A stretch of 64,000 nucleotides of DNA, taken from assembly GCF_026151205.1 (NCBI RefSeq), contig NC_087073.1, forward strand, positions 9,029,411 to 9,093,410, read 5' to 3'. Positions 1 through 21,403 of the stretch are shown in pieces. Each line of letters starts with the position of its first letter. The first letter of the stretch is position 1. The notes under the pieces were generated by a model. That model searched no databases and was not told the DNA's origin. It saw only the letters and a list, made by a program, of their open reading frames with translations. The position numbers were made by a program, and so were the translations under genes. Source of the stretch: Bolinopsis microptera. Lineage: Eukaryota; Ctenophora; Tentaculata; Lobata; Bolinopsidae.

Positions 1-109
1 AGCAACTTGAAAGTTACTACAAAGTAGATGACATGAAAATGACATGAAAATGAGCGAACAGCTTTTAATTACAATTTATGATATAGTTTGGAATAAATTA
101 AATTCACCT

Positions 110-115
110 TTTATT
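110..115 (-). promoter_or_regulatory. Candidate polyadenylation signal of the lectin gene
   Basis: AATAAA occurs on the minus strand about 120 bases past the lectin stop codon. Placement fits a poly(A) signal, but the sequence is AT-rich, so chance occurrence is possible. Nothing else is seen in 1-234. Confidence 0.4.
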
Positions 116-234
116 CGTGTTTTGTTTGAAAAGCTTACTAAGGCTCACAAAAAATGTGGTTAATTAGATTGAAAAATATATATCATAATCTCATATATAT
201 ATCTAGGGTTTATGCCAGTACAACATGATATAAC

Positions 235-759
235 TTATTCAATATTGCCCTTTTCTGGTTGAATATAATACCCATCACCCAAAACCACAACCTCAGTAAG
301 ACATAGAGGTGCTTTGGTATCCAGCTTTATTTCCACCCTCCTGCCATGAACGATTCCTTCCATAGGGATATGATACCATCCAACGCTTCCCTTCTTGTAC
401 TCTATCGTGTGTATAAGTTGGGAGTCAAGGTATACTTTAGCTTTGTCTATTTTGTTAGCTTGTTCAAGTCGGCTCAGTATATTAATCTCAAATATTCTGT
501 AGCTCTGAGTAAGATCAACATACCACCAAGCTAACGAGCCGTCTACAGAGGGGTCTGTTTGAGTGGTATTACCATTAATAAATCTTGGATCTTCAATTCC
601 ATTGACAGCTCTGTTGGGTTCTCCGTTATCAGCTACCGATGATTGGTAACAAGATCTTCCCACAGCTAGGTCTCGGAGAATAGTGCTTTTCTCACCAGTC
701 CCAAAGACTTCAACTTGGGCCAAGGAGAGAGGTTTACCAGAAGTAAGTAAAACAGATAC
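235..759 (-). pseudogene. Lectin exon 6, 3' part: end of domain 3 and FTP domain 4
   Basis: On the minus strand the frame resumes at the second GTATC copy (759-755) as VSVLLTSGKPLSLAQVEVFG, completing domain 3. Domain 4 follows (SSVADNGEPNRAVNGIEDPR, TQTDPSVDGSLAWWYVDL, SRLEQANKI), then a TAA stop at 235-237. In domain 4 the usual NRxECxxR segment has changed (Ser for Asn, Gln for Cys, Lys for the last Arg), so sugar binding may be altered. In this allele the segment is cut off from its promoter and upstream exons. Confidence 0.8.
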
Positions 760-3700
760 TATAATGGCGCAGGAGGGTCAACCTGAAAAGAACATTGCTT
801 GACCCTCCTGCCCCACCGCATGGATCAGGAGGTTCATTTCAGAAACAGTGCTTGACCCTCCTGCCCCACCACATGGATCAGGAGGTTCATTTCAGAAAAA
901 ACAGTGCTTGACCCTCCTGCCCCACCACATGGATCAGGAGGTTCATTTCAGAAAAAACAGTGCTTGACCCTCCTGCCCCACCACATGGATTACGGGGGTC
1001 ATTTGAACCCACAAGACCATGTGCACTTATTTCTACATCGCGCGCGATACGTGTGTGCGTGATTACATGAAATCTTACCGCGCCCTACGCCAAGTAGACG
1101 AAAAGCGTGGTCGAAGAGCGAGAGTCGGTACAATAAATAAAACGAGAGTTGGTACATTTAACTGGCATTTTTTAACCGTGGTACAATCAGAATTGCATAC
1201 AGCCGACACAGGATGAGGGGGGGGGGGGCAATGACTACTGATGGAGACTTTTGAGCACCAATGGGGACGAAAATCATAGGGACTGAAGGTCAAATCGCTG
1301 GTGAAATTTTCCATTTGTCCCCATAAGTACCCAAAGTTTTGGCGAGTTTTATGTAGTTTTGATATTATCTTTTATTAAATGACTTCTAAAGGAGACTTTT
1401 GGGTACCAATGGGGGCTAAAAATCTTGGAGACTTGAGGTTAAATTGCTGGCGAAATTCTGCACTTGTCCCCAAAGTCATTGGCTCCCCCCCCCCTCCCCC
1501 GGGTGAGGTGACGGAGAAAAATAAACTGAGCTCAAGGCTACATTTCCAGATATCCCGCCAGGGCACCGTCGCTCATGCTGCAAAGTGTGTTGAGAGATGC
1601 CCACGTCATCACACGTAAACTGTGTCACGAATACCTGAAATGCAGACGTGCAGAACAAACATAACTCTGATCTATATTTTTCATAAAACTTTCAGGATTT
1701 GCCAATGAGGGAAAAGACAGCACTGTCCGAGAAGCTAGAAATGCATGAATCATAGGTGACATGGATAGGGGTAAGAAGTTTTTAAAAAACATGAAAATTG
1801 TGAAAGGAAAAGAAGTAGAAATGAGAAAGGGTAGATTTAAAATGTTTGAGAATCGATTTTGTGCTGAAGAACTCCGTCCGCAGGACGGGCTTCCGGCTAC
1901 TTATGATAATTCGAATAAATTTGAGATTCAAACAAGCTACGAATACGAATGCTTATAGCAGTGGCAAGCTCGTGGCAAGCTCTTGTTTGCTGCGCATTGG
2001 CTGCAATGTATAACCGCAGTATGAAGTATGAACTGTCAAAATATTTGAATTTGCTTACCTAGTGGCTTTGTTTGATAAAGCATACATACTTTATATACCG
2101 ATAAATCAATAACTCCTTTTGATTCTTCGGTTTGAGAATTGTGCGGTCACACATCTCTGCAATGTCTGAAAAGGTGGCAGGGAAGTATTGAAACTTACTT
2201 AACACTATATTTACAGTTAAACCTTGAACTACTATAACTAGGGCAGTAGGAAACGCCAAAAAGTAGATCATCTGACTAAAACAACTTAACTTCATCCAAG
2301 AGTCTAGTTAGCAGCATTGTAGCGATAAGATACCACCATAGTTTGAGCTGTCGACACTGAAATAAAACAAACAATTTACTTTTCACTACTGCAGGGGAAT
2401 GCATGCAATGTAAGATATAAAGAATAAAGATATAATATATTGTATGTTTTTCATCGTGGCCTCAGGGGAGAAGGGCAGCTCGAAAAACCGAAAAAAGTCT
2501 AAAAAACCGTGTTGGAGCTGGTGAGTTAAAGCTACCGATCTCGATCGTGAGAGTCAGATGATCAGATCGCATGTAACGTGAGTTTCGCCCGCCTGAATAA
2601 GGCAACATGAAATCATATTGCTGGTGACAGGTCTCGACCAAGATGTAAAATAAAGATACCCCAAATTTGTTATTTTTAAGCCGATTCACATCGACCCAAG
2701 TCTCTGCTTTGACCCTAAATGCTCAAACTTCGTTAATAGATTGGAAAATCGTGTTATGCTTGTTACTAATAACTGTTGTTTGTGAGAGGACATCTCGATT
2801 TCCCGGATCAGAGGATCACACCAATGAGGGGTTGATTGTGCATGTGTGAACTTCTTTTCAAATTGCCCGATTTTTTTTCAGTAGGTCACATTACTCGTGA
2901 CGTGCAAATGTATCTTTTGTCTTTTAATAGGTCAAGCTCAGAGCTTTAAAGCTTTAAAGACTTCTCCGTGACAAAGACGGCCGACATATATCTTCACTCC
3001 AGGAAAAGTCAGAACTCTTTCCACACCACATTCTTAAATGTACACGACAGCAGAACGACGATGTAGCCCCACGCCGCAGTAAACTTTAAATTTCTGACCC
3101 GGAACGAGCCCAGCAACTGTAGACAGCTGCGTGAGCTATGTACGGTTAGCAGATTTAAGAGCTTATGCAATAAGCAGTCACCGTTCACTCTCATGTTTGA
3201 CTCTTCTTCTTTTGAACAACAAATGTCCATTGAATGATGCCAAGCTAAGCGATTATGATTAGAAAAGTACCGTGATTTACACTGATGGCTCATACAAGGA
3301 CTTGTTGGACTTCGTGAATTTGGAGGACCTGCAGCTGTAATCAGTATTCAGTACTTCACTACCAGATGTGCGAGGCCGAGGTTTCCGTTTGACAACATTA
3401 CAAGTGGACCACCCAGGCCGGGATGATCACGCGCTAGTTGACATGAGATCTGATTCTCCGGGAAAATTGGGCGAGATGACCGGTGTCCTGTCAGAGGTCA
3501 CGGATACAAGGATACCAAAAATATAAATATTTTATTGTACAATTACAATAGTCGTATAAACTTGACAAATTCGCCTACCATCACGTGACCCTCGTCAACG
3601 AGCAAGTGAAAAATGTGTTCACAGCATTTAATTATACGGTAACTACACCATAGATTGACAAGCTAAGCGTACAGAAAAACGTCCAACTCCGGACTTTAAT

Positions 3701-6700
3701 AAAAACTCCGGTATAATAGCGTTTTTGACGGAGCAATTTAATGGCCTGGAGTAGGAAACTTTGTTGACCGGAATAAATTGATCCGAAAGGCGAAAGATAC
3801 ATATGAGAGGCCATCAAAAGATGGTACCAAAATCTCTCTGTGAAAAGTCCTTTTTACTTTTTTAAGCGTCAAAAGTCGGTGCACTTACTTTATCCATCGA
3901 AAAAAGGGCATCCCCTGGTGGCTCGTAAAGTATGCGAATTTTAGCTGTCTAGTAGCCATCTTTCTTGCTCTCTGGCCGTCTAAGAAGAAACATTATATCC
4001 GACTCTATACCCAAATAATCATATTATAAAACAGGATCATACATAGTTAATAGAACTCCATTAAGAAAAACATTCTTAAATACGTAATCTGTGCCTCGTA
4101 CAACAGTTTTCCAAACACTTCCTACAGCTAGCAATATCCCGTTATTTCATTTTAAATCATCAAAATTCTAAGTTCTAAAGTTACTATATTTAAGGTCATC
4201 AACAAAGCCTATTTGATATAAGTTTGTATTTAGGTCTACAACACGCCCTTTAAACTATACCACTACTATTAAACACAAATTTTCTCTTTGTGCTGAAAAA
4301 GTTTAAAGAAGCTTTACAACTTAACTCCAAACTAATGATTCAGTCTGTCTGTGCATTTTGGTTTTTTTTTAAAGTTCGCGTTTCGGTAGCCAGTTCACCC
4401 CACCTGCAAAAAAAAATTTTGGTTTTCCTAATTTTGGGGGCCCTTTTAGGTTCATTTTGTCCAAAAATTTTGGGGTTTTAATAACCTTTTTGTCGTTTTT
4501 TTAAGCCATTTTTCAAATTTTTTTTTTAAATTTTTTCGCTAGCTTTTTGCAAAATTTTTCGTTTTGGGGAAATTTTTAAAAGACGGTCACTTACTACTCA
4601 ATTTTAATGCATCAAAATTTTCCCTTTAAAACAGCGAGCGCTTTAAAAAATTTACGATCTTAAACGTTAAATAATTTTTCATGATTGCTTGCGAAATTTT
4701 TTTCCCCTTTAATTTTAATTTCCCCCTGAATTGTTTAAAAAAAAATTTTAGGCATTGTTTGATTTAAATTTTATGGAATAAGTTTTTTTTTCCCTGGGAA
4801 GGGAATTTGGCGGATTTGTAAAACACCAAAAATTGGTTTATGTAAAGGGTTTTTTCTTTTTTTTTTCAAGTTTCGGGGGCGCAGGAAATTGAACAATTAA
4901 TAAATTTTAAACTCCCCAAACTTTTAAGGCAAACCAACGGAAAAACCTCGTCATCTTTGGGAAAATTTCCTTCATTGACACACCTTTGGGGTTTAAAAAT
5001 TTGTTTTTTAAAAATAGGAAAACTAATTGGTTGTTCCTAGCGAATGTTATTTATACGTTAAAAAACAGGTCAGCGGGGAATATTCAAGTAAGGTCTTTGG
5101 GGCTTTCTTTTACAACGGGAAACAAGGAATTGAAATTTTAATTGAAACTAAAATGACGGGGTTTAATCTAAAAAACTTGTGCTACGTGTCACTCCTTTTC
5201 CTGAAAAAAAGCCCATTTTTTCCAAATTAAAAAAATGAGTATAAGATTGTTTTTAACCGTGTTAAAAATGTGTCAAAAAGTGTCCAAATTAAAATAAATA
5301 CCATAAAAAAATCTATTACATTTTTGGGAAAAATTTAGTATGAAACGGTGGAGGTTCTTTAAGCGGGCCATTCCAGTCCAACCCTGGAAATGACATACAG
5401 GATTTGTTTTACCTTGTTGCATGAAAGCACTAATATCACCAAATGCATCAACATTAAGAGTCAACCTGGACGTGTACTACGGACTGAACAAGACTATTTC
5501 CTCTAAATGTTCCTACTGTTTCAAATTATAGTAAAACTGAGAGAAGCTTTAGTTACTGTGGACCCTTTGTTTGGAATCAGCTTCCTTTGCAATTTGAGAA
5601 CATTAACCGATATCGTCTTGTTTAAAAGAGAATAAATACGCATCTCTTTGGAAAAAGCATTCATATAAGTAGCATATAATAACTTTCTCATAAACCCAAA
5701 CTTCATAAAAATAAGTTCTAATGACATATTCATGAGTCGCTTTAGATGGCTTGAACTGAATCTTTACTTAGCTGTCATTTGTTTAGTGCTCAGTGTCAAC
5801 AAGAATTTGTCATTATATTCTTCCCTGTGATAATATTCAATTTCAAGTCAATATATCATAGTTATTGAATTGCCTATATATATCCTGAAGTTAGGACTAT
5901 GATTTGACCTGCCCCATCCCCAAATTTTTGGGAAAGTTTTATGCCCCTTTTCGTGAAAAGAGGAAATTTAAATGAAGGCTTTTTTTTTATTCTGATTATC
6001 CGCTTTAAAAACATTATCAGGCCCGTTTCCTTTTTAAAGCCCAATTAAAAAAAAGAATGTAAATTTGTTTAGAGAAAAAAAAATTTAGGTCGAAAATTTT
6101 GATCCTTCCCCCCCCCCCCCCCCCTCGGGCCCTTATTTCATTAAACCCAAAAACCCCTGATTTTGAAGTTAACAGGCGGGAACACCCTAGCTGTCCAGCA
6201 TTGGGGGGTTTAACGGAAACGTGTTTTAGCTCTAGGTCACAGGCTGGACGTAGCTTGTGCCCTTGTCCAAAGTTCTGCGTTTCAGGTAACATCAGGAAAA
6301 AGAATAAGTTAAAGTTGAATGTGTTATGATGGGCCCCCGGAGGGGAAAGTCAGGTTATAATAATAACACCTTGAATTTTTAATGTACTTATATTAATATC
6401 TAAAAGAATCCTCTTCGAATATTTTCTGTGACAAGTGGATCTGAATCTTTGATTAGAGTTGGTGGTTACTGTCTGGTGACATTACACACTCACTTTATCT
6501 TCCCTCTTGGTCCAAGGGATGTTTTTAAGAAGGGCATTAATAACTTCCCTTACTGACATACGCATACTTACAACAAACTAGCTGCATTGCTTTGGACTTG
6601 TCAGTAGGAATGCCTGGAAGATCGGTTACCCAACTGTCTACTTGAATGACCAACCCAAAAAATAGGAAGAGATCAAGAGGCAGGTCTATAGGAAGAGCTT

Positions 6701-9700
6701 AAATGTAGTAGAAATGTTACCTACCCTCGAAGATGTATAAGTAAAGTAATAAAAAAGTCGCGCAGACTAATCTTTTTGGCATGGAGATCTCGCTAGAGTA
6801 ACATGTTACTTGTATTGGTTCAATCAATAACATATAACAATTAAAGAGTTAAGAGTCCAACTAGGAATTTAACACAAAATATATATTTAAATTCATTCAC
6901 TGCAACAAATCACTCCATAAATCATGTAGGAGTATTTGATTAAGACTTGAGTTCCAGATCACCTATATATTGTTGGTAAAAAATCCCCCCCTTTTTAAAA
7001 ACCCCTAAAAAAAAATAAAATGTCATGGGTAAGGATATTTTTTGTAGGTAGTTTTTGAAAAACAGAGTGTACCAGGCCGTTTTTGTTTTTAGAATCAAAA
7101 ACAAAAAGTAAAACCTAATCAAATGTGAGAGGATGAAGCAAAGTTGAAAAAAAACAAAGAGCCCCAGAAGGTTAAACTGGTTGCTTACAATTCCCCCATT
7201 TTGTTTGTGAGAATTATAAGGGTCTAAAGGCCATGAGTGTAAAGGGCCACTATGGTTTTTAAAGATTTTAATAAACCCTTTGACAGGTAATAAAGGTTTG
7301 TTTTTAAAAAGCCAGCCATGCTTTTTGAAGCCTCGAGTGCCGGGTTCAACACACTGGGAAGGGGGCGGAAAAGGCGGATGGTTTATGGGCGCGCACAATA
7401 GGCGTAAAGCCCCTTAAGTAAAAGTAAGTTTTTAAGAACAAAAGCAAATGGTATACCAGAATGGGATTACAGGGGTCTTCGAAGTCCTGGTAGGATCAGG
7501 ATTCGGGGTACTGCAAAGAGACACCTCATACTTGTTCATCATCGTGATTGACTATCTCATGACAGTGGCTATAGATGATGACTCAGACTCTGGGTTCCTC
7601 TTAAGACTGCACAGGGTGTAGATGGATTTGTGCTGAAAAATATCGCATATGTCAAATTCTCAGATGATGGTGCATATCACTGATATAATTGAATGGGGCA
7701 AAACTACTCTGGACAGGCTATAGGAAGCAGCAAAAAGTGTGGGTTAGTCTTGAACAACCTCTTCAAACCCATCTCATGACTCTAAACACTACAGAGGAAA
7801 GTAGACTTTAAAGCTGTTCTGGAACACCTGCTGGAAAACGTACCTTGGGGGCATAGATATCAACAACTGAGAGAGACTTTAGAGAGACTTTTCAAGAGCA
7901 ACTATGAAGATACAAGAGCGTAGGATGCAACTAGCTTTGCCATATACACTGGCACCTGAACTAGTTGCTAAGTGTGGGGTACTTAATGAACCTAACCATG
8001 GGTGCTGAGCAGGGGTAGAACAGTCATAACTTTATGTTGATAGCCTAAGGGCTGATCGGGATTTGCGTAACACTGGAGAAAATCACGGGACTTATGGAGG
8101 ATAGAAATCTATCGAGACAGTGCATCAATACTCGGCGTGAAGCCTAAATTAAGAGAAGTTTAAAGTTCACAATCATAATATTATTTAAAATTGCCTCTAA
8201 TAGCTACTGATAATCAGCTTGATAGAGTCTTCCCGCCAGTTTATCAGAAATAAATAAAATGCAGAACCTAACAAAAGGACTAAAATGATCCAAGATACTA
8301 TATTTCATGAAAATTACTGAATTTGCATTGGCGCTCGATTCAAAAGAATTTTAGTAATGATGCGTTGACAAAATGCGCGGCGCGCAAAAATTATCATTGC
8401 AAATTGTTTGTTGTTAAACAAATTCATAAAATAATCTGTAATAATATAGTTCTAATAGTGTATAAAAAAGAATAATCTCAAAATATAACCACTAAACAGA
8501 GCAAACACGAGGATCGCGCAAAAACTTCTATCTATTTTGACATTTTCCGCGATTTTAAATAGGAACCATTTAAAATATGTAAACCAAATACGCAAAACAT
8601 TAAAATCTTGATCCATAAATTTTTACTTGTAGAGTCCCCGGTCAATAGTTTGCAAAAATAATTTTATATACGAAAATATAAAGAATTTAAAAAACTTTAT
8701 GGATCAATAAATTAACGGTTTGCGTATTTTGTTAATTATACAATATGTATAAAACAAGGTTCTGTTCAAAATCCCGGAAAATTGTCAAAATAGATATGAT
8801 TTTTGCGCGATCCTCGTTTTTGCTCTGTTCTATTACTGGGCGCGCTCAGCCTGTCATTCCGGCCTAATCTCTAATGTTTACCCAACATAAAGCCTGGGGT
8901 CCTCAGGTAATCTGTTTAGTGTTTTATATTGAGATTATTCTTTTTATTCACACTATTAGAACTATATATTACAGATTATTTTATGAAATATGTTTGAACA
9001 ACAAACAAATTTCAAATGATAATTTTTGCGCGCCGCGCATTCTGTCAACGCAATCATTAACAAAAATCCATTGGAATCGAGAGCCAATGCAATTTAGTAA
9101 TTTTCATGAAATATATCTTGGAGTTATTTTTAGTCCTTTTGTTAGGTTCTGCATTTTTATTTATTTCTGAATAAACTGGCTGGAAGACGACTCTCAAGCT
9201 GGATACTCAGTCGCTATTAGAGGCAATTTTAAATAATAATTATGATTGTGAACTTTTAAACTTCTCTTAATTAGGCTTCAGCGTCCGAGTATTGATGCAC
9301 TGTCTCGATAGATTCTATCCTCCATACGTCCCCGTGATTTCTCCAGTGTTACTCAAAACCCGTATCAGCCCTTAGGCTACAACATAAGTTATGGACTGTT
9401 CTTCCCCTGCTCAGCACACCATGGTTAGGTTTCATTAAGTAACCCACACTTAGCAACTAGTTCAAGGTGCCAGGTATATGGCACAGTAGTTGCATTCCTA
9501 CGCTCTTGGATCTTCATAGTTGCTCTTGAAAAGTCTCTTAAAGTCTTTATCAGTTGTTGAAATCTATGCCCCAAAGGTACGTTTTCAGCTGGTTTCCAGA
9601 ACAGCTTTAAAGTCTACTTTCCTCTATAGTGTTTAGAGTTCATGAGATTTGTTTTAGAGTTGTTCAAGACTAACCCACCACTTTTTGCTGCTTCCTATAG

Positions 9701-12700
9701 CCTGGTCCAGGAGTAGTTTTGCCCCATTCAATTATATCAGTGATAAGGGCACCATCATCTGAGAATTTGACATATGCGCTATTTTCAGCACAAATCCTTC
9801 TACACCCTGTGCAGGCTTCAGAGAGAACCCAGAGTCTGAGTATCATCTATAGCCACTGTCATGATATAGTCAATCACGATGATGAACAAGTATGAGGTGT
9901 CTCTTTGCAGTACTCCCGAATCCTGATCCTACCAGGACTTCGAAGACCCCTGTAATACCATCCTGCAGTTGTGATTACTTACAGCCACTGTGTTTGTGTA
10001 GATCAATCGCACTATGTATTCTGGTATACCATTTGCTTTAAGATCTTAATAAGCAAACCTTTATGTACACTGTCAAGGCTTTATTAAAATCTATAAACAC
10101 ATAGTGGCCCTTCACACTCTTTAGACCCTATATAACTTCCTTCACAGAACAAGAATGTGCGAAGTTGTAGAGCAACCAGGTCTGAAGCCCATTCTGGTTG
10201 TCTCTTCGTTTTTCCTTCAAGTCTTGGCTTCATCTGCTCAGCATTTTGATTAGGTTTTACTTTTTTTTTTGTTTCTAAAAAAGACGTGGGGCCCTTTGGG
10301 AGCATCGTTTGCATAAAATCCCATAATGTATCATTTCCATGACATGTATAGTTTCTTTTAGGGGTTTAGAGGGTCGGATTTTAGGACCCAAAACAAATGG
10401 TGTTGGAACTCAATTATCAATACTCCCACGTTTTATGGAGTGATTGTTGCGGAAAAAATTTAATATTATTTGTGTTAAATTTCCTTTTTGGACTCTTTAA
10501 ATCTTTAATTTTATGTTTTGGTTGAAAGTAAAAATGTTATTAGCGAGATCCCCTAAAAAGTTTTCTGGCGAGCTGTTTTATTATTTCTTTTTCTTTCGGA
10601 GGGGGGGTCATTTTTTACTACATTTAGTTTCCCTTGACCGTCTGATTTTTATTTTGGGGGGTATTCAAATAATTTCCCCGTCTTGCCCCCCGGGGGTCCC
10701 TATAGACATTCAATTTCTTTTTTATTTCTTTAATTTTTTTCATTTATGAGTTACCTGTTAAATCGCAGCAAGGAGGGACAATGGACATCAAGACTACTGT
10801 CACAGCCTGGTGACCTAGAGCTAAATGAGCTCCTGTTTCCTGTGTAGACCTCCCAGATGTGGACAGGCTAGGATGTTCCTCGCCTTGTGAGTAACTTCAA
10901 GAATCAGGTGTTATGGATTTAATGAAATAAGGCCAGAGGGGGGCGGGGGGGGGGGGGGGGGAAGGATCAAAATTTTCCGATCTAAATTTTATTTCTCTAA
11001 ACAAATTCACATTTCATTATTCAATTGGTGTCTTAATTATGGATATACTGGACCTGATAATGTGATGTAAGATGACGTGATAATACGGGAATAACATGAA
11101 GCCTTCATTCAATTAACCTCATTTTACGATAGGAGCATATAACTTCCAAAATTAGGGGATGGGCAGGTCAAATCATAGTCCTAACTTCAGGATATATATA
11201 GGCATTCAATAACTATGATATATTGACTTGAAATTGAATATTATCACAGGGACAATATAATGACAATTCTTGTTGACACTGAGCACTAAAGTAAGACAGC
11301 TAAGTAAAGATTCAGTTCAAGCCATCTAAAGGGACTCATGAATATGTGCATTAGAACTTATTTTTATGAAGTTTGGGTTTTATGAGAAAGTATTATATGC
11401 TACTTATATGACTGCTTTTTTAAGAGATGCGTATTTATCTCTTTTTTGAACAAGACGATATCGGTTAATGTTCTCAATTGCTAAGGAAGCTGATTCCAAA
11501 CAAAGGGTCCACAGTAACTAAAGCTTCTCTCAGTTTTACTATAATTTGAAACAGTAGGAACATTTAGGAGGAAAATAGTCTTGTTAGTCCGTAGTAGTAC
11601 ACGTACAGGTTGACTCTTAATGTTGATGCATTTGGTGATATAAATTTGGAGTACGTTGTTGACACATTTGAACACGGTTTAGAGCAATCTTATACTCTAT
11701 TTGTTGTCCTTATTGGAAGAAAATGGGCTTTTTTCAGGAATGGAGTGGACACTGTGAGCACAATGTTATGTTATGATTACCCTTGTCAGTTTTAGTTTAC
11801 AATGATATTTCAATTCCTTGTTTCTGTTGTAAAAAAAAGCCCAAAAGCCTTTTTGAATATTCCGCGACATGTTTTAACGTTTATAAAAAATCGTTTTTTG
11901 TAGGATACAACCAGATTGTTTTCCATTTTAAAAAAATTTAAAGTTAACAAAGAGTTGTGCAAATGTATTGAACTCCCAAAAAAAGTGCAGAGGTTAAGTC
12001 GTTGGTTTTGTCATAAATGTTTTTGGCGTAAATTTTTTATTTAATTTTTCTAATTCTCGTTGCAGTGCCCCCAATTTGAAAAAAAGTAAATAATTTAAAA
12101 ACCAAATTTCTGGTGTTTTTAATCCGCCGAAATTCCCCTTTCCCCGGAAAGAAAATCTATTTAACCATAAATTTGCAAAATTTCCTAAAAATTTTTTGTT
12201 TAAAAAAAAATTTTTTTGGGAGGATTATTTTAAAGGGGATAAAATTTCGCGAGCATTCTGGGGTTTGATTAAGAATTTATTTTCGGGAATTTAACAAATC
12301 GCTCTGGTTTATAGGTAAAAGTTGTGTGTAGTAATTGATTTGTAAGTTTTCGTCTTTAATAATTTCCCCGATCGAAAAATTTTTAGTCAAAAAAGCTAGC
12401 TGAATAAATTTTAAAAAATTAAATGTTTAAAAAAAGGGCTTAAAATACGAATAATTTGTTGTTGGAAAAATTAACAAAAATTTTGACCTTTTTTATGGTA
12501 ACCCTAATTTTTTATGGGAACCAAAATTATTGTGAACCAAATTTTTTCAGGTTTGGGGGGTGAACATGGGTACCGAAAGTGCGAACTTTTGAAAAAAAAA
12601 ATCAAAAGCGGGACAGAAGAAACATTGTTTGAGTTAAGTTGTAAAGCTTCTTTTTAAAATTTTTTTCCCCAAAAAAGAATTTGTTTAAATGTGTGGTAAA

Positions 12701-15700
12701 TTTAAAGGGGGTTGGTGACCCAAAACAAACTTTCAATATGTTTTGGGGTGACTTAATATAGAAAAGAACTTAGAAATTTGAGTGATTTAAAGAAATAAGG
12801 GAATTGAGCTGTAGGGGAAATGTTGGAAAAGTTGTACTAGGCCAAGATTACGTAGTTAAGATGTTTTCTAATGGAGTTCTATTAACTATGTATGATCCTG
12901 TTTTATAATAAGATTATTTGTATAGAGTCGTATATAATGTTTCTTCTTAGACTGCCAGAGAGCACAGAAGATGGCTACTAGACAGCTAAATCGATACTTT
13001 ACGAGCCACCAGGGGATGCCTTTTTACGATGGATAAAGTAAGTGCACCGACTTTTGACGCTTAAAAAAGTAAAAAGGACTTTTGCACAGAGATATTTGGT
13101 ACCATCTTATGATGGCCTCTCATATGTATCTTTCGCCTTTCGGATCAATTTATTCGGTCAACAAAGTTTCCTACTCCAGGCCATTAAATTGCTCCGTCAA
13201 ACGCTATTATACGGAGTTTTAATATAGTCCGGAGTTGGACGTTTTTCTGTACGCTTAGCTTGTCAATCTATGTGTGTAGTTACCGTAATAATATAACTGC
13301 TGTGAACACATTTTTCACTTGCTCGTTGACGAGGGTCACGTGATGGTAGGCGAATTTGTAAAGTTTATAGACTATTGTAATTGTACAATAAATATTTATA
13401 TTTTTGTATCCTTTGTCTTCCGTGACCTCTGACAGGACACCGGTCATCTCGCCCAATTTTCCCGGGAGAATCAGATCTCATGTCAACTAGCGCGTGATAT
13501 CCCGGCTGGGTGGTCCACTTGTAATGTTGTTCAAACGGAAACCTCGGCCTCGCACATCTGGTAGTGAAGTACTGAATACTGATTACAGCTGCAGGTCTCC
13601 AATTCACGACGTCCAACAAGTCCCTTGTATGAGCCATCAGTGTAAATCACGGTACTTTTCTAATCATAATCGCTAGCTTGGCATCATTCAATGGACATTT
13701 GTTGTTCAAAAGAAGAAGAGTCAATACATGAGAGTGAACGGTGAACTGCTTATTGCATAAGCTCTTAAATCTGCAAACCGTACATAGCTCCGCAGCTGTC
13801 TACTGTTGCTGGGCTCGTTCCGGGTCAGAAATTTACAGTTTACTGCGGCGTGGGGCTACCTCGTCGTTCTGTGTCGTGTACATTAAGAATGTGGTGTGGA
13901 AAGAGTTCTGACTTTTCCTGGAGTGAAGATATTATGTCGGCCGTCTTTGTCCGGGAGAACTTTTTAAAACTTTAAAGCTTGGCTTGACTATTAAAAAACA
14001 AAGATAATTTGCCGTAGGTATGTGACCCCCAGAAAAAAAAACGGGCATTTGAAAGAATTTTCACAAGCCAAAAAAACCCCCATTGGTGTGTCCTTGACCC
14101 GGGAATGGTGTCCTCTCCAAAAAACCCGGATTGTAAAAAACATACACGATTTTCAATTATACGAAAGTTGGCTTTAGGGTCAAAGCGGGGCTTGGGGCGT
14201 GTGAATCGGCCCAAAAAAAAAAATTTGGGGTATCTTTATTTTCATTTTGGTCGAGACCGTACCCGCAAAATGTTTCTGTTGCTTATTCAGGCGGGCGAAA
14301 AATCAGAAGCGCATATCGGGTTCACGATCGAGATGGTGCTTTTAATACCAGTCCACTGGTTTTTTCTTTTTTCGGTTTTTCGAGGCCTCCCCTGAGGCCC
14401 GATGAAAAAAAACAAAAATTATTCTTTATTCTTTATATGTTAAAGGATTCCCCTGCAGTAGTGAAAAGTAAATTGTTTGTTTTATTTCAGTGTCGACAGC
14501 TCAAACTATGGTGGTATCTTATCGCTACAATGCTGCTAACTAGGACTCTTGGATGAAGGTTAAGTTGTTTTAGTCCGATGATCTACTTTATGGCGTTTCC
14601 CTACTGCCCTAGTTATAGTAGTCAAGGTTTAACAAGTAAATATAGTGTTAAGTAAGTTTCAATATTTCCCTGCCACCTTTTCAGACATAGCAGAGATGTG
14701 TGACCGCACAATTCTCAAACCGAAGAATCAAAAGGAGTTATGATTTTCGGTATATAAAGTATGTATGCTTTATCAAACAAAGCACTAGGTAAGCAAATTC
14801 AAATATTTTGACAGTTATACTGCGGTTAACATTGCAGCAATGCGCAGCAAACAAGAGCTTGCCACGAGCTTGACCACTGCTATAAAGCATTCGTATTCGT
14901 AGTTGTCTTGAATCCTCAAATTTATTCGAATTATCATAAGTAGCCGGAAGCGTCCAGCGGACGGAGTTCTTCAGCACAAAATCGATTATCAAACATTTTA
15001 AATCTACCCTTTCTCATTTCTTACTTCTTTTCCTTTCACAATTTTCATGTTTTTTAAAACTTCTTTCCCCCTATCCATGTAACCTATGATTCATGCATTT
15101 CTAGCTTCTCGGACAGTGTGTCTTTTCCCCTCGTGGCAATCCTGAAAGTTTTATGAAAAATATAGATCAGAGTTATGTTTGTTCTGCACGTCTGCATTTC
15201 AGGTATTCGTGACACAGTTTAGTGAGATGACGTGGGCATCTCTCAACACCACTTTTGCAGCATGAGCGACGGTGCCCTGGCGGGAATCTGGAAATGTAGC
15301 TTGAGCTCAGTTAATTTTCTCCGTACCTCACCCGGGGGAGGGGGGGGGGGGGCCCAATGACTTTGGGTACTTTGGGGACAAGTGCAGAATTTCGCCCAGC
15401 AATTTAACCTCAAGTCTCAAGATTTTTAGCCCCCCATTGGTACCCAAAAGTCTCCTTTAGATGTCATTTAATAAAGATAATATCCAAAACTACATCAAAC
15501 TCGCCCAAAACTTTGGGTACTTATGGGGGACAAATGGAAAACTTTCCACCAGCGATTTGACCTTCAGTCCCTATGATTTTCGTCCCCATGGTGACTCAAA
15601 GTCTCATCAGTAGTCATTGCCCCCCCCCCCTCATCCTGTGTCGGCTGTATGCAATTTGATTGTACCACGGTTAAAAAATGCCAGTTAAATGTACCAACCT

Positions 15701-18700
15701 CTCGTTTTATTTATTGTACCGACTCTCGCTCTTCGACCACGCTTATCGTCTACTTGGCGTAGGGCGCGGTAAGATTTCATGTAATCACGCACACCACGTA
15801 TCGCGCGCGATGTAGAAATAAGTGCACATGGCTTGTGGGTATCAAATGACCCCCGTAATCCATGTGGTGGGGCAGGAGGGTCAAGCACTGTTTTTTCTGA
15901 AATGAACCTCCTGATCCATGTGGTGGGGCAGGAGGGTCAAGCACTGTTTTTTCTGAAATGAACCTCCTGATCCATGTGGTGGGGCAGGAGGGTCAAGCAC
16001 TGTTTCTGAAATGAACCTCCTGATCCATGCGGTGGGGCAGGAGGGTCAAGCAATGTTCTTTTCAGGTTGACCCTCCTGCGCCATTATAGATACAGTTGAA
16101 GCACTGTAATCATCTGTAAGAAATTCGTAGACTTGCTTGCCTTTTTCATATTGGATTGTTCTTACGACTTTCTTTCCCAAAAGAATGGCAGCATTATTAA
16201 TCCTATCAGCACACTCTACTCTATTGTATATCTTTACTGATCTTATTTTGTAAAAATCCTCAAGATCACAATGCCACCAAGCCCACGATTTATCTCTCCC
16301 AGGATCAGTATGAGTAACCCCTTTACTGAAAGAACATTGGGTCAACATTTGTACAAAATAGTCACAGTAAGACTACAGAAGAGGATATCTAAGTTTGAGA
16401 ATGTGAATTACCTAATAATATTGTACTAGATTATAATATAGTACAGAAGTAGTGACTACTTATTAAATACCTTTCATAAACACCATCTGTACTACCATCA
16501 ACAGCTCTAAGTGGATCACCACCCCATCCAGTTGAAGACTGTGTAACCCGAGTTTTTCTATGAGCCAAGTTTATCAAATCTGAAAGAAAAAAATGTGAAA
16601 AGACATATTTTTGAATTTTGAGCTTGTTGCATTTGGACACAAAGGGAAACACAATATGAGGCTTGAATTCATTATGAATTTTTTTATTAAAACGGAGCTT
16701 GTTAACGCTCCTGCCTTCAATAATCAGAGAATGAGAAAGAGATCTTGCATTCAAATAACATAAATTATACTTGAATTTGGTATATATTTTCACCTGGTTC
16801 AGTGGTACAATCACTCATAACAACCACCTCACTCAGACTAAGTGGTTCTCCAGTATTCAACTTGATTTCTACTTTCTTGCCATACCTAACTCCTTTTACT
16901 GGTATGTGATACCACAACAATCCAGGTTTGTATTCGATTGTATGGATAAGATAAGAATCAATGAACACTTCTGCTTTGTTTATCCTCTTAGAACATTCCA
17001 GACGGTTCAATAAGTTGATTTCATGTATTCTAAACCGTTTATCCAACACCACATTCCACCATGCTGACTTCTCCTTCTTATTATCATTATGAGTTGTATG
17101 CCCAGAGATATACCTTGGATCTTCAATCCCATCAACAGCCCTGTTTGGATCACCACCATGCAAATGTGAAATTGAAGATTGGAAGCAAGGCTGTTTTTTA
17201 GCAACATTATACAGTGGATGAATTTGCATGCTGTTGCCCCAAACTTCCACTTGTGCCAATGAAAGAGGCTTTCCTGTCGTCAATATCACTGTTACACAGT
17301 TTGCAGGATAGTTGTCAGCAAAAAACTCATAGAGTTGTTGTCCTTGGTTATAACGAATAGTTCCAATTACTTTTTTCCCTAACAGAATTGAAGCACCATC
17401 TATTCTTTCAGAACATTCAACTCTATTGTAAATTCTTACGGAGTTGACCTTATACCAACCATCCAAATCACAACTCCACCATGCCCAACCCTCATCAACT
17501 TTCGGATCAGTATGTGTGACACCATTCCTGGTGAAATTATGACATCAAGTTTAGAAAACCTACAAACTTCAGAAGTTAAAATCTGTTCGATACCAATACT
17601 ATTTATTCAGCAGGTTTAAAAGTAAATGTGGTACAATAAAATACTATACAGCGGGATTTGGGAGAAAAGTAAAAGCTGTGTTAAATCTGTGTCGGCAGTA
17701 AATCAGGGTTTTGATTGTTAAAATTTATATGTTAATTCCTAATTTGGGGGAAATCAGAGATTGCTGTAAATTGGGATTGCAGTAAATGAGAATTGCGGTA
17801 AATAGGTGATTGCGGTAAATCGGGGGCGGTTAATCTGGGTTTGGATGTACTCGATACTGATTTCATCGAATCATAATATCTCAAAAAGGCTTGTAAAAAT
17901 GTCCAAAGAGCTCAGGAGAACGAAGTAGAAATGCTCTTTGATAAACTAGCAGGTACTAATAGGTTTGCCTTAATAGTACAGTACAAATCAAGAAAGAAAA
18001 CTACAAATTCAGTGGAATCTGACTGTTCCAGGTTGGTTAAGGTGACGAAGAAGATAAATTTAGCTTACTTTTTATAGGTCCCATCAGTATTACCATCAAC
18101 TGCTCGCAAGCAGTCACCACCCCACCCTGTTGAAGACTGGGAGACCTTTGTCTTATGAAGTGTTAGATTTATGAATCCTGAAAAAGAAGTTTATTGTATA
18201 ATCCTTCAAATTTCATGACACAACCATGCCACAAAATATCTGCATGATTTCGATTGTCTGTTTGAAGTACCATGATTTGTTCTTAATTTACCATTATGAT
18301 TGCTCGTTGAACAGGATGCGGATGTGTCTGGTGAGAACGGGTCTGATATATCTGAAATTAAAGGTTGTTTAGGGCAAAGTACAGCATATTATTGCTTGTT
18401 ATTATCTTCTAGAAATAAGAGTTCTAGTAATAAACTTAAATGAAGGAATGAATAGCAGCAAGTAAATGATAGTGGCTGTGATTTTAGTAAGACTCACTCA
18501 TGTCGTTTAATTTGAACTTGAGGAAATTGATTTCTTGGTCCTTTGCCTCTATGTATTGTCTTGCACTTTGCAGTTCTGACCGAAGAAAGAAAATATATCT
18601 CGTTACCACATCAGGGGATAGGTGTCCAATTTCATGGCCCAAGACATTATCAGGGCACGAAGTTACTTCTTCCAAGGTAGAAAGGTAAGTTAATGTTGTC

Positions 18701-18702
18701 AT
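235..18702 (-). CDS. Four-domain F-type (FTP) lectin gene, interrupted by a 15.3-kb palindromic element
   Basis: Six exons join in phase on the minus strand: 18702-18498, 18351-18292, 18177-18069, 17527-16794, 16579-16471, and 16325-16089 continued by 754-235. Together they give 1,974 nt (657 aa plus TAA at 235). Exon 1 encodes a helical, coiled-coil-like N-terminus. Exons 3-4 encode FTP domains 1 and 2; exons 5-6 encode domains 3 and 4. Each domain shows the F-type lectin pattern: SSTGWGGDxxRAVDG or a similar NRAVDG start, a THTDP or TQTDP loop, an AWW core, and the NRxECxxRI segment, which in this family supplies the arginines that contact fucose. The products of such genes recognise fucosylated glycans in innate defence or cell recognition. 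The start Met at 18702 is the first in exon 1; no signal peptide is visible, so an upstream exon is possible. The current allele stops inside the insertion, at 16046, after 12 foreign residues. It loses half of domain 3 and all of domain 4. Confidence 0.82.
797..1010 (+). repeat. Left subterminal tandem repeats of the foldback element
   Basis: Nearly four copies of a 56-60 base unit start GCTTGACCCTCCTGCCCCAC and contain CCTCCTG and its inverse CAGGAGG about 20 bases apart. Each unit can therefore fold on itself. Copy 1 has CACCGCATGG where the others have CACCACATGG. The last unit is cut short after CACATGGATTACGG. Confidence 0.85.
1236..1500 (+). repeat. Internal tandem duplication within the arm (about 145-base period)
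   Basis: Two diverged copies (about 1240-1345 and 1385-1500) share GGAGACTTTTG, CCAATGGGG, a GCTGG-GAAATT block and TTGTCCCC. Both occur inverted in the other arm at about 15350-15610. This is non-coding repeat substructure of the foldback element. Confidence 0.55.
7150..8010 (+). pseudogene. Decayed LINE reverse-transcriptase fragment (left arm)
   Basis: With frameshifts allowed, the plus strand reads GVLQRDTSYLFIIVIDYLM, the RT block that in active LINEs reads GVLQGDTLxPxLF. Next come GVDGFVLKN and an AYVKFSDDGALITDIIEWGK block, then VGLVLNN. This is the palm region of an RTE/CR1-like endonuclease-reverse transcriptase, with FSDD at the catalytic box. Multiple stops and frameshifts make it inactive. 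The segment around 7458 lacks about 60 bases present in the right arm. Confidence 0.6.
8830..8910 (+). mobile_element. 81-base miniature element (family A) in the right arm only
   Basis: The sequence TATTACTGGGCGCGCTCAGC... to CCTCAGGTAA is flanked by the direct repeat TCTGTT (8824-8829 and 8911-8916). The matching place in the left arm (about 8500) reads straight through with one TCTGTT, so it is an empty site. Short imperfect inverted ends (TTACTGGG and TTACCTGAGG in reverse complement) suggest a non-autonomous DNA element. The same family recurs at 27590-27670 with the same length. Confidence 0.7.
9480..10260 (-). pseudogene. Decayed LINE reverse-transcriptase fragment (right arm)
   Basis: On the minus strand this copy preserves more of the RT than the left arm. 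It reads a QNG-containing block, then FIDFNKALDSVHKGLLIKIL and KANGIPEYIVRLIYTNTVAV, then the GVLQ block in a shifted frame. These correspond to the fingers and first palm motif of LINE RTs. Stops and frameshifts are abundant. It is the same relic as at 7150-8010, duplicated with the arm. Confidence 0.6.
15840..16055 (-). repeat. Right subterminal tandem repeats of the foldback element
   Basis: This is the mirror image of the left array, in the same order and with the same variant outermost copy (CACCGCATGG in reverse complement). The identical register of variants in both arms shows the arrays were copied as one piece rather than expanding separately. Confidence 0.85.
16089..16325 (-). pseudogene. 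Lectin exon 6, 5' part: FTP domain 3, cut by the insertion
   Basis: The exon starts after a TTTCAG acceptor and encodes GVTHTDPGRDKSWAWWHCD, KIYNRVECADRI and the following strands of domain 3. The host reading frame ends at the target site GTATC (16093-16089 on the minus strand). Beyond this point the frame enters the palindromic element and stops at 16046. The remaining part of the same exon lies 15.3 kb away, at 235-759. Confidence 0.8.
16471..16579 (-). CDS. Lectin exon 5: start of FTP domain 3
   Basis: The 109-nt exon lies between a TTCTTTCAG acceptor and a GTATTT donor. It encodes INLAHRKTRVTQSSTGWGGD then PLRAVDGSTDGVYE, paralogous to exon 3. Its phase (two bases in, two out) matches exon 6. 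Confidence 0.8.
16794..17527 (-). CDS. Lectin exon 4: rest of FTP domain 1 and all of domain 2
   Basis: This 734-nt exon is open throughout. It carries GVTHTDP, GWAWWSCDLDGWYK and NRVECSERI of domain 1. After a short linker come the complete domain 2 (SSISHLHGGDPNRAVDGIED, SAWWNVVLD, NRLECSKRI) and a terminal SLSEVVVMSD block. The exon ends at CCAG followed by GTGAAA. The arginine-containing NRxECxxRI element is kept in both domains, so both could still bind fucose. Confidence 0.85.
17531..18065 (-). other. Lectin intron with degenerate AT-rich short repeats
   Basis: This is the intron between exons 3 and 4. Around 17690-17850 there are several degenerate copies of a unit like ATTGCGGTAAAT(C/A)GGG. 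No coding signal is seen on either strand. Confidence 0.4.
18069..18177 (-). CDS. Lectin exon 3: start of FTP domain 1
   Basis: This 109-nt exon encodes LHKTKVSQSSTGWGGDCLRA followed by VDGNTDG, the conserved FTP start. It runs from a TTTTTCAG acceptor to a GTAAGC donor. Exon 5 has exactly the same length, the same phase and a closely similar sequence, so exons 3-4 and 5-6 appear to be an internal gene duplication. Confidence 0.8.
18292..18351 (-). CDS. Lectin exon 2: Ser/Thr/Pro-rich linker
   Basis: This 60-nt exon lies between a TTTCAG acceptor and a GTAAAT donor. It enters with two bases and leaves with one, matching both neighbours. It encodes a Ser, Pro, Asp, Asn-rich spacer (around PFSPDTSASCSTS) between the helical N-terminus and the first FTP domain. 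Confidence 0.55.
18498..18702 (-). CDS. Lectin exon 1: N-terminal helical region
   Basis: The exon has 205 nt (68 codons plus one base) and ends at a canonical donor, GTGAGT. The sequence from about residue 34 to 68 is rich in L, E, K, Q and I with heptad-like spacing and looks like a short oligomerising coiled coil. The trailing base A joins the first two bases of exon 2 to make Asn. No hydrophobic signal sequence follows the Met. Confidence 0.6.
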
Positions 18703-19567
18703 AACAACAACTAACTTTATGTAACTATTCCATGTAATCTTAGAAGAAAAACTTGTGAGCTAAAGTAAACATAGGAACATCAAAGATCCATTCGCAGATT
18801 TGAATGCATCACAATGTAAACATTATTGTAGGTGATTTAGGGGTCTGGCAAATAGTATTTCCGACCATAATATTCAAACTAAACAATATACACGGATAAT
18901 TTTAATAATGGTGATTGTCTAGCTATAAGGTTAGACATCCTTGAAAATGAATAAACCAATACAATTTTTAAAACCAGGGTAGAAAATAAAACCCTTAGTA
19001 ATATATAAAACGGTAAACTAAAAATTACATTCCACAAATTCACTTAACAACAACAAGCAGTTCAGGCTCTCGCCCATCAAACACTCCCAGACCTTTTGAC
19101 GGCCCCAACGTTAATGTGGCTCTTGCTATGTGTTCGTTCAGCCGAATTAATTATTATATAATCAAGTTTATTTTTCTCGTTAGTTGTCATCCGGCCAAAC
19201 ATTAAGCAACTTATATTGCAGTACCATTTATCATTTAGTAATCAAAATATGTCATTGTAATTTTGCATGGCTGAAATGTAACGCTTGATTTATATATATA
19301 ATGATTAATTGAATTTTCAAAAAAAAAATGATCTAGGAGTGTTGATCAAGGTAAGTTCCAAATTACTTATTGAAGTGGGTGGCAAACTTTCGGCGTATCG
19401 CAGTATGCTTCTAATAAAGGACATTACATCGCAATGCGTTTGGCCTTTCTTATCAGTTCTCAGCAAGGTACTTCAAAAATTGTGGTTGCGAGAAACATTA
19501 TTTGGTGCGCGGCGCGGCCTAGTAGTGCATCGCGCCACTTATAATAAGTAGCACAAAAATATTCTTG
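18703..19567. other. Upstream flank of the lectin gene
   Basis: The stretch is AT-rich and has no convincing ORF or splice structure. Any lectin promoter, or a missing signal-peptide exon, should lie here, but no TATA or initiator can be singled out. Confidence 0.3.
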
Positions 19568-19646: not shown

Positions 19647-20012
19647 ACCCAGCAATCCTTACTGGCTAGCGATATTACTACAGGGTGATCGCCTTTTCAC
19701 AGCTTGTTGAACTCCGCGCGCGCTCGCTAGTTCATTGCATTTGCACGCTTCAAATATTCCAAGAATGCAATTGTACCGCGTACCACGTGATACGATTCAG
19801 CCAATCAGAGAACAACAATCTGCAAAGTTAAAGCTACGCAGTTTTATAAGGCCTAAAATATGACTTTTCGTGATAATTCAAAATCTACGTTGTTTTCAAT
19901 TTCCCCCCTGGGGGGAAACGTTATTTTTGCGAAACGAACATTTTGCAAAAAACCGGAAGACGCTATCTCTTTTACTTTCAAAGTTAGGCTCCAGCCAGTA
20001 AGGTTTCCTGGG
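19647..20012 (+). repeat. 366-base direct repeat, copy 1 (promoter-like)
   Basis: This copy matches 20478-20843 at a constant offset of 831 bases, with only about one visible mismatch (CAGCTTG versus CAGCATG). It contains CCAATCAGAG, then TTTTATAAGG about 40 bases later, which resembles CCAAT and TATA elements. An open frame across it (TFRDNSKSTLFSISP...) has no recognised homology. Confidence 0.85.
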
Positions 20013-20477: not shown

Positions 20478-20843
20478 ACCCAGCAATCCTTACTGGCTAG
20501 CGATATTACTACAGGGTGATCGCCTTTTCACAGCATGTTGAACTCCGCGCGCGCTCGCTAGTTCATTGCATTTGCACGCTTCAAATATTCCAAGAATGCA
20601 ATTGTACCGCGTACCACGTGATACGATTCAGCCAATCAGAGAACAACAATCTGCAAAGTTAAAGCTACGCAGTTTTATAAGGCCTAAAATATGACTTTTC
20701 GTGATAATTCAAAATCTACGTTGTTTTCAATTTCCCCCCTGGGGGGAAACGTTATTTTTGCGAAACGAACATTTTGCAAAAAACCGGAAGACGCTATCTC
20801 TTTTACTTTCAAAGTTAGGCTCCAGCCAGTAAGGTTTCCTGGG
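20478..20843 (+). repeat. 366-base direct repeat, copy 2, abutting the LINE
   Basis: This is the near-identical partner of 19647-20012. Its end (TTTCCTGGG) directly joins the LINE sequence at 20844, while copy 1 continues into unrelated DNA. It may be a tandem 5' promoter unit of the LINE or a duplicated host segment. The CCAAT and TATA-like motifs point downstream, towards the LINE ORFs. Confidence 0.85.
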
Positions 20844-20905: not shown

Positions 20906-21403
20906 CATCAAACTCCATCTGACATCAAACAAGTGTTCAATAAATTTACTAGTAAAATTGCTGAAATTCAAGCTGTCAATAAAAAAACTAATGTTTATAT
21001 ATGTCCGCTGCTGCCAACTAAATGTATTGATTTAAATAGAAGAGTCAATTTCTTTAACTATCTGATTCAAACCCAGCTTCTCCCTTTCAACTTTGGTGTG
21101 AGACTGGTAGAAGGGTTTCCAAGCTTTGCTGATGAGAACGGGCTATTAAGCCAACACTTGTCAAAAAGGTTGACGAAGTTCCAGAAACCTGATTACTTAC
21201 ACCTCAATTGGAGGGGGGTTGCAAAATTAGCAGCAATCATTAAAAATACTATTCTTCTTAGAGTTAATGGTGGTCGAGACAGACGCAGAGCTGGACGAGG
21301 GGGGAATCAGGTGGACTCCACATCATTTCGTGACATAACTGCACGCTCTCTTCCTGCTGATAAACGAGTATCTGGTGCTCCTGACGGCTACCAACCGTCA
21401 TGA
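20906..21403 (+). CDS. LINE ORF1 C-terminal part (SGNH/GDSL esterase-like)
   Basis: The frame is open from just after a TGA at 20903 and has no upstream ATG. It reads VNKKTNVYICPLLPTKCIDL, a LNRRVNFFNYLI helix and, near the end, KPDYLHLNWRGVAKLAAII. The D-x-x-HLN signature is the last catalytic block of SGNH hydrolases, which occur as ORF1 proteins of CR1/L2-type LINEs. A basic, Gly/Arg-rich tail (GGRDRRRAGRGG) could bind RNA. The nucleophile-containing N-terminal half is absent, so the ORF is 5'-truncated or begins in an unseen exon. Its TGA overlaps the ORF2 start as ATGA. Confidence 0.55.
   Translation, partial: HQTPSDIKQVFNKFTSKIAEIQAVNKKTNVYICPLLPTKCIDLNRRVNFFNYLIQTQLLPFNFGVRLVEGFPSFADENGLLSQHLSKRLTKFQKPDYLHLNWRGVAKLAAIIKNTILLRVNGGRDRRRAGRGGNQVDSTSFRDITARSLPADKRVSGAPDGYQPS

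What the first reader, a model, noticed from the sequence alone, without database searches (positions are those of the whole stretch)
755..16093. A 15.3-kb near-gapless palindrome has jumped into a lectin exon, with a 5-base target duplication
The termini (TATAATGGCGCAGG...) are perfectly inverted, GATAC flanks both ends, and the host lectin exon is open and in frame on each side. Removing the element and one GATAC gives a continuous 657-codon gene. This gives an exact insertion event rather than a mere inverted duplication. Foldback elements with arms of more than 7 kb and almost no loop would be exceptional. The family and the transposase that moved it are unknown.
Basis: partly seen in the sequence, partly recalled or inferred. 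Interest (0 to 1): 0.88.

Follow-up and report, generated by a model that had tools for sequence, protein, structure and literature searches.

The report
Giant hairpin transposon inside lectin exon
A 15-kb stretch of non-coding DNA whose two halves mirror each other has jumped into a lectin-like gene; it belongs to a family of giant hairpin elements in this genome whose halves seem to copy their sequence from one another.

Summary
Window 760-16088 is an inverted-repeat element with almost no loop, flanked by GATAC on both sides, inside an open 267-codon exon of an F5/8-type-C (lectin-like) gene. The same assembly holds an empty site: unplaced contig C26 carries both flanks with one GATAC. The element is one of at least 16 paired copies. 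Exact 5-bp duplications flank 9 of the 13 copies with both ends intact. So it is a mobile, foldback-type family. No transposase was recognised in nine copies read whole; the mobilising enzyme is unknown. In eight other copies the arms agree at 99.5-99.96% over 7.4 kb, while all eight centres keep one shared asymmetry. Of 21 outer-arm sites whose minor state occurs in exactly 2 of 16 arms, 19 are in both arms of one copy (1.4 expected): evidence for arm-to-arm copying. The window's copy is the exception: its arms are about 87% alike, yet its flanks differ from the empty site by only about 1%, so it probably jumped with arms already diverged. New variant of a known kind (foldback elements).

The parts
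755..759 (.). left copy of the 5-bp target duplication, GATAC
16089..16093 (.). right copy of the 5-bp target duplication, GATAC
760..16088 (.). foldback element, copy E1 of the family
760..8660 (+). left arm (inner limit approximate; centre near 8,660-8,710)
8710..16088 (-). right arm (inner limit approximate)
785..1004 (+). four 56-bp subterminal repeats, left; possible transposase-binding sites (inferred)
15844..16063 (-). four 56-bp subterminal repeats, right
760..783 (+). 24-bp terminus, the same in 46 of 49 places found within 3 mismatches
16065..16088 (-). 24-bp terminus, right
238..754 (-). 3' part of the interrupted lectin-like exon
16094..16372 (-). 5' part of the interrupted lectin-like exon
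16768..17544 (-). neighbouring 259-codon exon, F5/8 type C-like (PF22633)

Best explanation
A non-autonomous cut-and-paste DNA transposon of the foldback type and unusual size: its whole body is two arms of about 7.5 kb facing each other. A transposase supplied in trans (inferred, not found) recognises the invariant 24-bp ends, perhaps with the 56-bp subterminal repeats (inferred), and inserts the element by a 5-bp staggered cut (duplication shown). The window's copy landed in a lectin-like exon on one of two versions of the site (shown; that these are two haplotypes is the simplest reading). The arms are kept alike by arm-to-arm copying, that is gene conversion or gap repair with the other arm as template (pattern shown, molecular route inferred). 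Copying reaches about 5.6-7.4 kb inwards and spares the centre, which still carries the asymmetry of one common ancestor (shown). The window's copy was not levelled in this way and moved with arms already diverged (inferred from arm and flank divergence).
For: Empty site with one GATAC. At least 16 paired copies, exact 5-bp duplications in 9 of 13. 46 of 49 termini exact over 24 bp, control 0. Arms of E2-E9 99.51-99.96% alike over 7,400 bp. 19 of 21 two-arm variants in both arms of one copy, 1.4 expected; 27 sites in all are private to one copy yet on both arms. All eight centres orient alike, 95.7-98.7% one way and 88.4-90.5% the other (E7 is the reference). The insertion of about 280 bp near arm position 5,614 is on one arm only in six copies, on both in E5, on neither in E6.
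Against: E7, E8 and E9 have unlike 5-mers at their two ends and E14 a one-base slip, and E8's flanks come from different contexts. No transposase or autonomous copy was found. 78 variants are on one arm of one copy only, so levelling is incomplete or slow. Consensus polishing across the arms could in part mimic copying. C26 and the window part company after window 18870, so C26 could be a recent duplicate rather than an allele.
Confidence: 0.8

Rival explanations
1. Assembly artefact: a palindromic read with a missed adapter, or a false join, made the inverted duplication.
For: Long palindromes are a known artefact of long-read data (recalled). E7, E8 and E9 lack matching duplications and E8's two flanks are unrelated, as a false join would give.
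Against: In the window the arms are only about 87% alike, the lectin exon continues on both sides, GATAC is duplicated and an empty site exists. At least 15 other copies have the same limits, and nested inserts sit on one arm only.
Confidence: 0.04
2. The arms are alike not because they copy each other but because each new copy is built by doubling one arm, for example by snap-back synthesis during transposition.
For: It too would put private variants on both arms of one copy.
Against: Doubling should make the centre symmetrical, but all eight centres keep the same asymmetry, 11-16 differences in 167-168 sites, and six of eight copies keep an insertion on one arm only.
Confidence: 0.08
3. The likeness of arms in E2-E9 is simple youth: a burst from one nearly symmetrical master, with little copying since.
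For: Each arm is 99.4-99.9% like the majority of all arms, so the family spread recently; 78 variants are on one arm only.
Against: 27 variants are private to one copy yet on both arms, and 19 of 21 two-arm variants are in one copy; E5 and E6 have swapped marker states in opposite directions.
Confidence: 0.12
4. It is a remnant of a Polinton/Maverick-like or other large gene-carrying element.
For: Size of 15-32 kb and inverted ends.
Against: 5-bp, not 6-bp, duplication and ends that do not begin with AG (Polinton features recalled). ORFs of 130 codons or more in nine copies looked like nested retroelements or short noise by eye, not like Polinton genes.
Confidence: 0.03

Closest known systems
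Galileo of Drosophila (P superfamily, foldback-like), above all D. willistoni copy 112 (PMC4168063; section on TIR variation read; other passages)
   Same: Copy 112 is 9,021 bp, almost wholly two arms (4,246 and 4,680 bp), without transposase, with tandem repeats in the arms and an identical target duplication; Galileo copies exchange and cause inversions.
   Different: Arms here are about 7.5 kb and family-wide, not in one exceptional copy; the duplication is 5 bp (P superfamily about 7-8 bp, recalled); no P-type transposase seen.
Tetris of Drosophila virilis (PMC4079207; passages)
   Same: Non-autonomous foldback with tandem repeats in the arms and no transposase found; the authors suggest homogenisation of repeats.
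   Different: Arms up to 1,735 bp; three complete copies.
Mutator-related foldback elements, such as Tm1 of root-knot nematodes (PMC3169594; search listing and start of abstract)
   Same: Long inverted repeats with little between them (recalled in part).
   Different: Target duplication of 8-10 bp in Mutator elements (recalled), 5 bp here.
Sex-chromosome palindromes with arm-to-arm gene conversion (willow, PMC7023750; search listing and start of abstract; mammalian cases recalled)
   Same: Arms kept nearly identical by copying between them.
   Different: Those are resident chromosomal structures; this one is mobile and dispersed at 16 or more places.
Transib/RAG-like transposons (recalled)
   Same: 5-bp target duplication.
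   Different: Their ends begin CAC; here they begin TATAATGG. A transposase could not be sought because the family search did not complete.

Membership tests
Foldback-type DNA transposons (structural class) | long inverted arms making up most of the element, small or no middle | tested here: met
   in E1 and the eight other copies read whole; larger middles hold nested inserts
Foldback-type DNA transposons (structural class) | target-site duplication | tested here: met
   exact 5 bp in 9 of 13 copies with both ends intact; empty site for E1
Foldback-type DNA transposons (structural class) | tandem repeats within the arms (common, not universal) | tested here: met
   56-bp repeats, four at each end of E1
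Galileo / P superfamily | 7-8-bp target duplication (recalled) | tested here: not met
   5 bp
Galileo / P superfamily | P-type transposase in an autonomous relative | tested here: inconclusive
   no transposase recognised in nine copies read whole or in E8's six-frame arm by Pfam; no P-family search of the genome was made
Mutator (MULE) | 8-10-bp target duplication (recalled) | tested here: not met
   5 bp
Mutator (MULE) | MULE transposase | tested here: inconclusive
   one ORF with a FLYWCH domain, which some MULE proteins carry (recalled), in an insert on one arm of E9 only; no MULE domain matched; no genome search was made
Transib / RAG-like | 5-bp target duplication | tested here: met
Transib / RAG-like | ends beginning CAC (recalled) | tested here: not met
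   ends begin TATAATGG in 46 of 49 places
Transib / RAG-like | RAG1-core-like transposase in an autonomous relative | not tested
   search tried nine times, never answered
Polinton/Maverick | 6-bp target duplication and ends beginning AG (recalled) | tested here: not met

The most novel reading that the evidence does not exclude
A mobile palindrome that mends itself: because both halves hold the same sequence, a lesion in one arm can be rewritten from the other, so a gene-less parasite keeps 7-kb ends usable by someone else's transposase. Its mobiliser would be a superfamily with a 5-bp cut and TATAATGG ends that fits none of the families compared here.
Probability: 0.25. Interest if true: 0.8.

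Novelty: new variant of a known kind. Interest (0 to 1): 0.62.

Why it matters
The arms are longer than any foldback arms I met in eight literature searches of open-licence papers, where the longest seen was 4.7 kb in one Galileo copy. The family is a natural series of dispersed palindromes in which one can read how far arm-to-arm copying reaches and where it stops. E1 has an empty counterpart in a coding exon, so effects on the host gene can be tested. Copies whose two ends do not match (E7, E8, E9) are candidates for exchange between copies, as Galileo does when it makes inversions. A transcript of such a hairpin would give long double-stranded RNA (inferred).

Tried and rejected
Autonomous partner: sought by ends within 3 mismatches. 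The 49 places are 29 ends of the paired copies E1-E15, 11 ends in copies of another repeat that carries a terminal fragment of about 260-375 bp (nine on L049-L057, two on L048), and nine single ends including E16's. None was shown to belong to an element with a transposase, but E10 and E13-E16 were not read inside, E11 and E12 only in part, and the nine single ends only in part. More diverged ends would escape the scan. The RAG1-like family search did not complete in nine tries.

Species: not established.

Empty sites for other copies: the 1.2-kb left flank of the C41 copy, E8's left flank and part of E7's are repeats, so no unique empty allele was read from them. E8's left flank continues in two repeat copies (L068, L069) with other sequence than E8's right flank, which matches none of three fetched copies; rearrangement or false join is left open.

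Rows dropped: E2 (right terminus damaged, flanks do not match), E11 (left terminus damaged) and E16 (left end not found) are outside the 13 copies counted for duplications. E1 was kept out of the site counts because its arms are divergent; E10-E16 were not in them. Classes used sites with at least 6 copies comparable and bins that skip positions 6,300-6,400; the 2-of-16 count used sites with all 16 arms read. From 5,500 to 7,655 that count was 4 of 5, too few to judge. Arm comparisons count substitutions on aligned positions only. In the earlier 400-bp-segment analysis, 37 of 46 informative sites had both arms equal in every copy, 9 did not.

Literature searches for such a family found no record (eight calls named above); that does not show it is unpublished, since most subscription papers and preprint servers are not held.

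Full report
Observation. The element spans 760-16088, with GATAC at 755-759 and 16089-16093. Its halves align in inverted order almost to the middle. Identity is 99% in the outermost 250 columns and falls to 61-77% in several inner blocks. Each end carries four 56-bp repeats. No Rfam family reaches its threshold in the window, and the longest open stretch in the element is 157 codons.

Host site. The gene runs on the minus strand. The neighbouring exon matches PF22633, F5/8 type C-like, above its cut-off, while P0001 matches PF00754 and PF22633 only below theirs. P0001, 79% identical, aligns over 199 residues without a gap through the insertion point. With the joined exon as query, the genome holds it uninterrupted and 98% identical on unplaced contig C26. 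At DNA level C26 221-1005 matches window 1-759 with 4 mismatches and one 26-base gap, and C26 1000-3782 matches window 16088-18870 with 38 mismatches and 56 gap bases; GATAC stands there once. After C26 3782 the two part company within the 6 kb of C26 that I read. C26 is most simply the other haplotype; a recent duplicate is not excluded.

Family. A 341-bp end query gives 42 matches, a lower bound since 40 of 51 candidates were scored. A 24-bp end pattern gives 49 places, 46 exact, with 0 for the control. They pair head to head at 15-32 kb as E1 (the window) to E15; E16 has paired arms but its left end was not found. A 991-bp inner arm segment gives 40 matches, again capped, in those copies and a few single places, one of them on C11 at 86%. 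Of 13 copies with both ends intact, nine have an exact 5-bp duplication: GATAC, ATTGT, CATAG, GTTAC, GTAGC, GTAAG, CAAAC, CTGTT, GTCTT. E14 shares four bases with a one-base slip. E7, E8 and E9 do not match.

Contents. Nine copies were read whole, E1-E9. Differences in length come from inserts in an arm or in the middle; by eye their ORFs look like reverse transcriptases and one Gypsy-type polyprotein, and most were not run against Pfam. E9 has an ORF with a FLYWCH domain in an insert on one arm only. In 15.5 kb of E12's interior and 10 kb of E11's nothing like a transposase stood out among ORFs of 140 codons or more. One arm of E8 in six frames, stops as X, gives a single reverse-transcriptase match just below its cut-off and nothing else at E 0.05.

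Arms. Projected on a reference arm of 7,655 bp, the arms of each of E2-E9 agree at 99.51-99.96% over the first 7,400 bp and at 99.575-100% over the first 5,500 bp, substitutions only. E8's outermost 4,353 bp are identical in both arms. In the last 255 bp before the centre all eight copies differ at 11-16 of 167-168 sites, and all eight centres can be turned the same way, 95.7-98.7% in one orientation and 88.4-90.5% in the other, with E7 as the reference. The central asymmetry is thus inherited from one ancestor.

Site counts. Of 7,360 sites compared, 78 variants are on one arm of one copy, 27 on both arms of one copy, 15 on both arms of several copies, 11 fixed between the two arm types, and 22 other. 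Among sites 0-5,500 with all 16 arms read and the minor state in exactly two arms, 19 of 21 are in both arms of one copy, against 1.4 expected. An insertion of about 280 bp near arm position 5,614 is on one arm only in E2, E3, E4, E7, E8 and E9 (in E9 overlaid by a larger insert), on both arms in E5 and on neither in E6. Features at 6,300-6,390 are of the second type on both arms in E5 but on one arm in E6. These are marks of copying in both directions, with tract ends between about 5.6 and 7.4 kb from the terminus. Doubling of whole arms does not fit the retained centre. Polishing of the assembly could level arms in part, but it left the centre, 78 one-arm variants, one-arm inserts and E1's arms unlike.

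The window's copy. E1's left arm is 99.2-100% like the majority of the other copies over the first 3 kb while its right arm dips to 88.6-90.6% in two windows there; further in both dip. Its flanks differ from the empty site by about 1% in substitutions, so arms that are about 87% alike cannot well have diverged since insertion at the same rate. Near-identity of arms is therefore not needed for transposition.

Mechanism. Shown: exact insertion with a 5-bp duplication, a mobile family, no recognised transposase in the copies read, and arm-to-arm copying as a pattern. Inferred: a transposase in trans acting on the 24-bp end and perhaps the 56-bp repeats, and conversion or gap repair as the route of copying. 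E8's left flank continues otherwise in two repeat copies than E8's right flank does, as exchange between copies would give, or a false join.

Comparison. By structure it is a foldback element. The longest arms I met in the literature are 4,246 and 4,680 bp in one Galileo copy; Tetris has up to 1,735 bp. It fails the duplication length of P, Mutator and Polinton elements and the end motif of Transib, those features being recalled. I file it as a new variant of a known kind with an unknown mobiliser.

Noticed in passing
L049-L057 and L048 (places on C1, C3, C6, C7, C8, C9): Eleven places share the same upstream flank and then the foldback terminus for about 260 bp: another repeat family seems to have captured and spread a piece of the foldback end.
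   Followed up: partly
L048 (C6:18773085 and 18773596): Two of those captured ends stand in tandem 511 bp apart.
   Followed up: no
C1:12862040, 12864473 and 12868529: Two foldback ends in the same orientation 2.4 kb apart, then arm sequence: one copy rearranged or inserted in another.
   Followed up: no
L025 left flank, L068-L070: E8 lies in a high-copy repeat, but its right flank is not the continuation of that repeat.
   Followed up: partly
window 21400-24750: Open 1,116-codon ORF with endonuclease-like and reverse-transcriptase domains, a non-LTR retroelement; a 366-bp direct repeat, 19647-20012 and 20478-20843, 99.7% alike, lies upstream.
   Followed up: partly
window 47030-47490: Array of about 53 copies of a 9-bp unit, TACACTCTC, lying in a 197-codon open frame.
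   Followed up: no
L067 (C26:3783-6000): C26 stops matching the window after window 18870, so the two site versions differ by more than the foldback element.
   Followed up: partly
window 53462-53516: Perfect array of 5.5 copies of a 10-bp unit, TTAACCAGTA.
   Followed up: no
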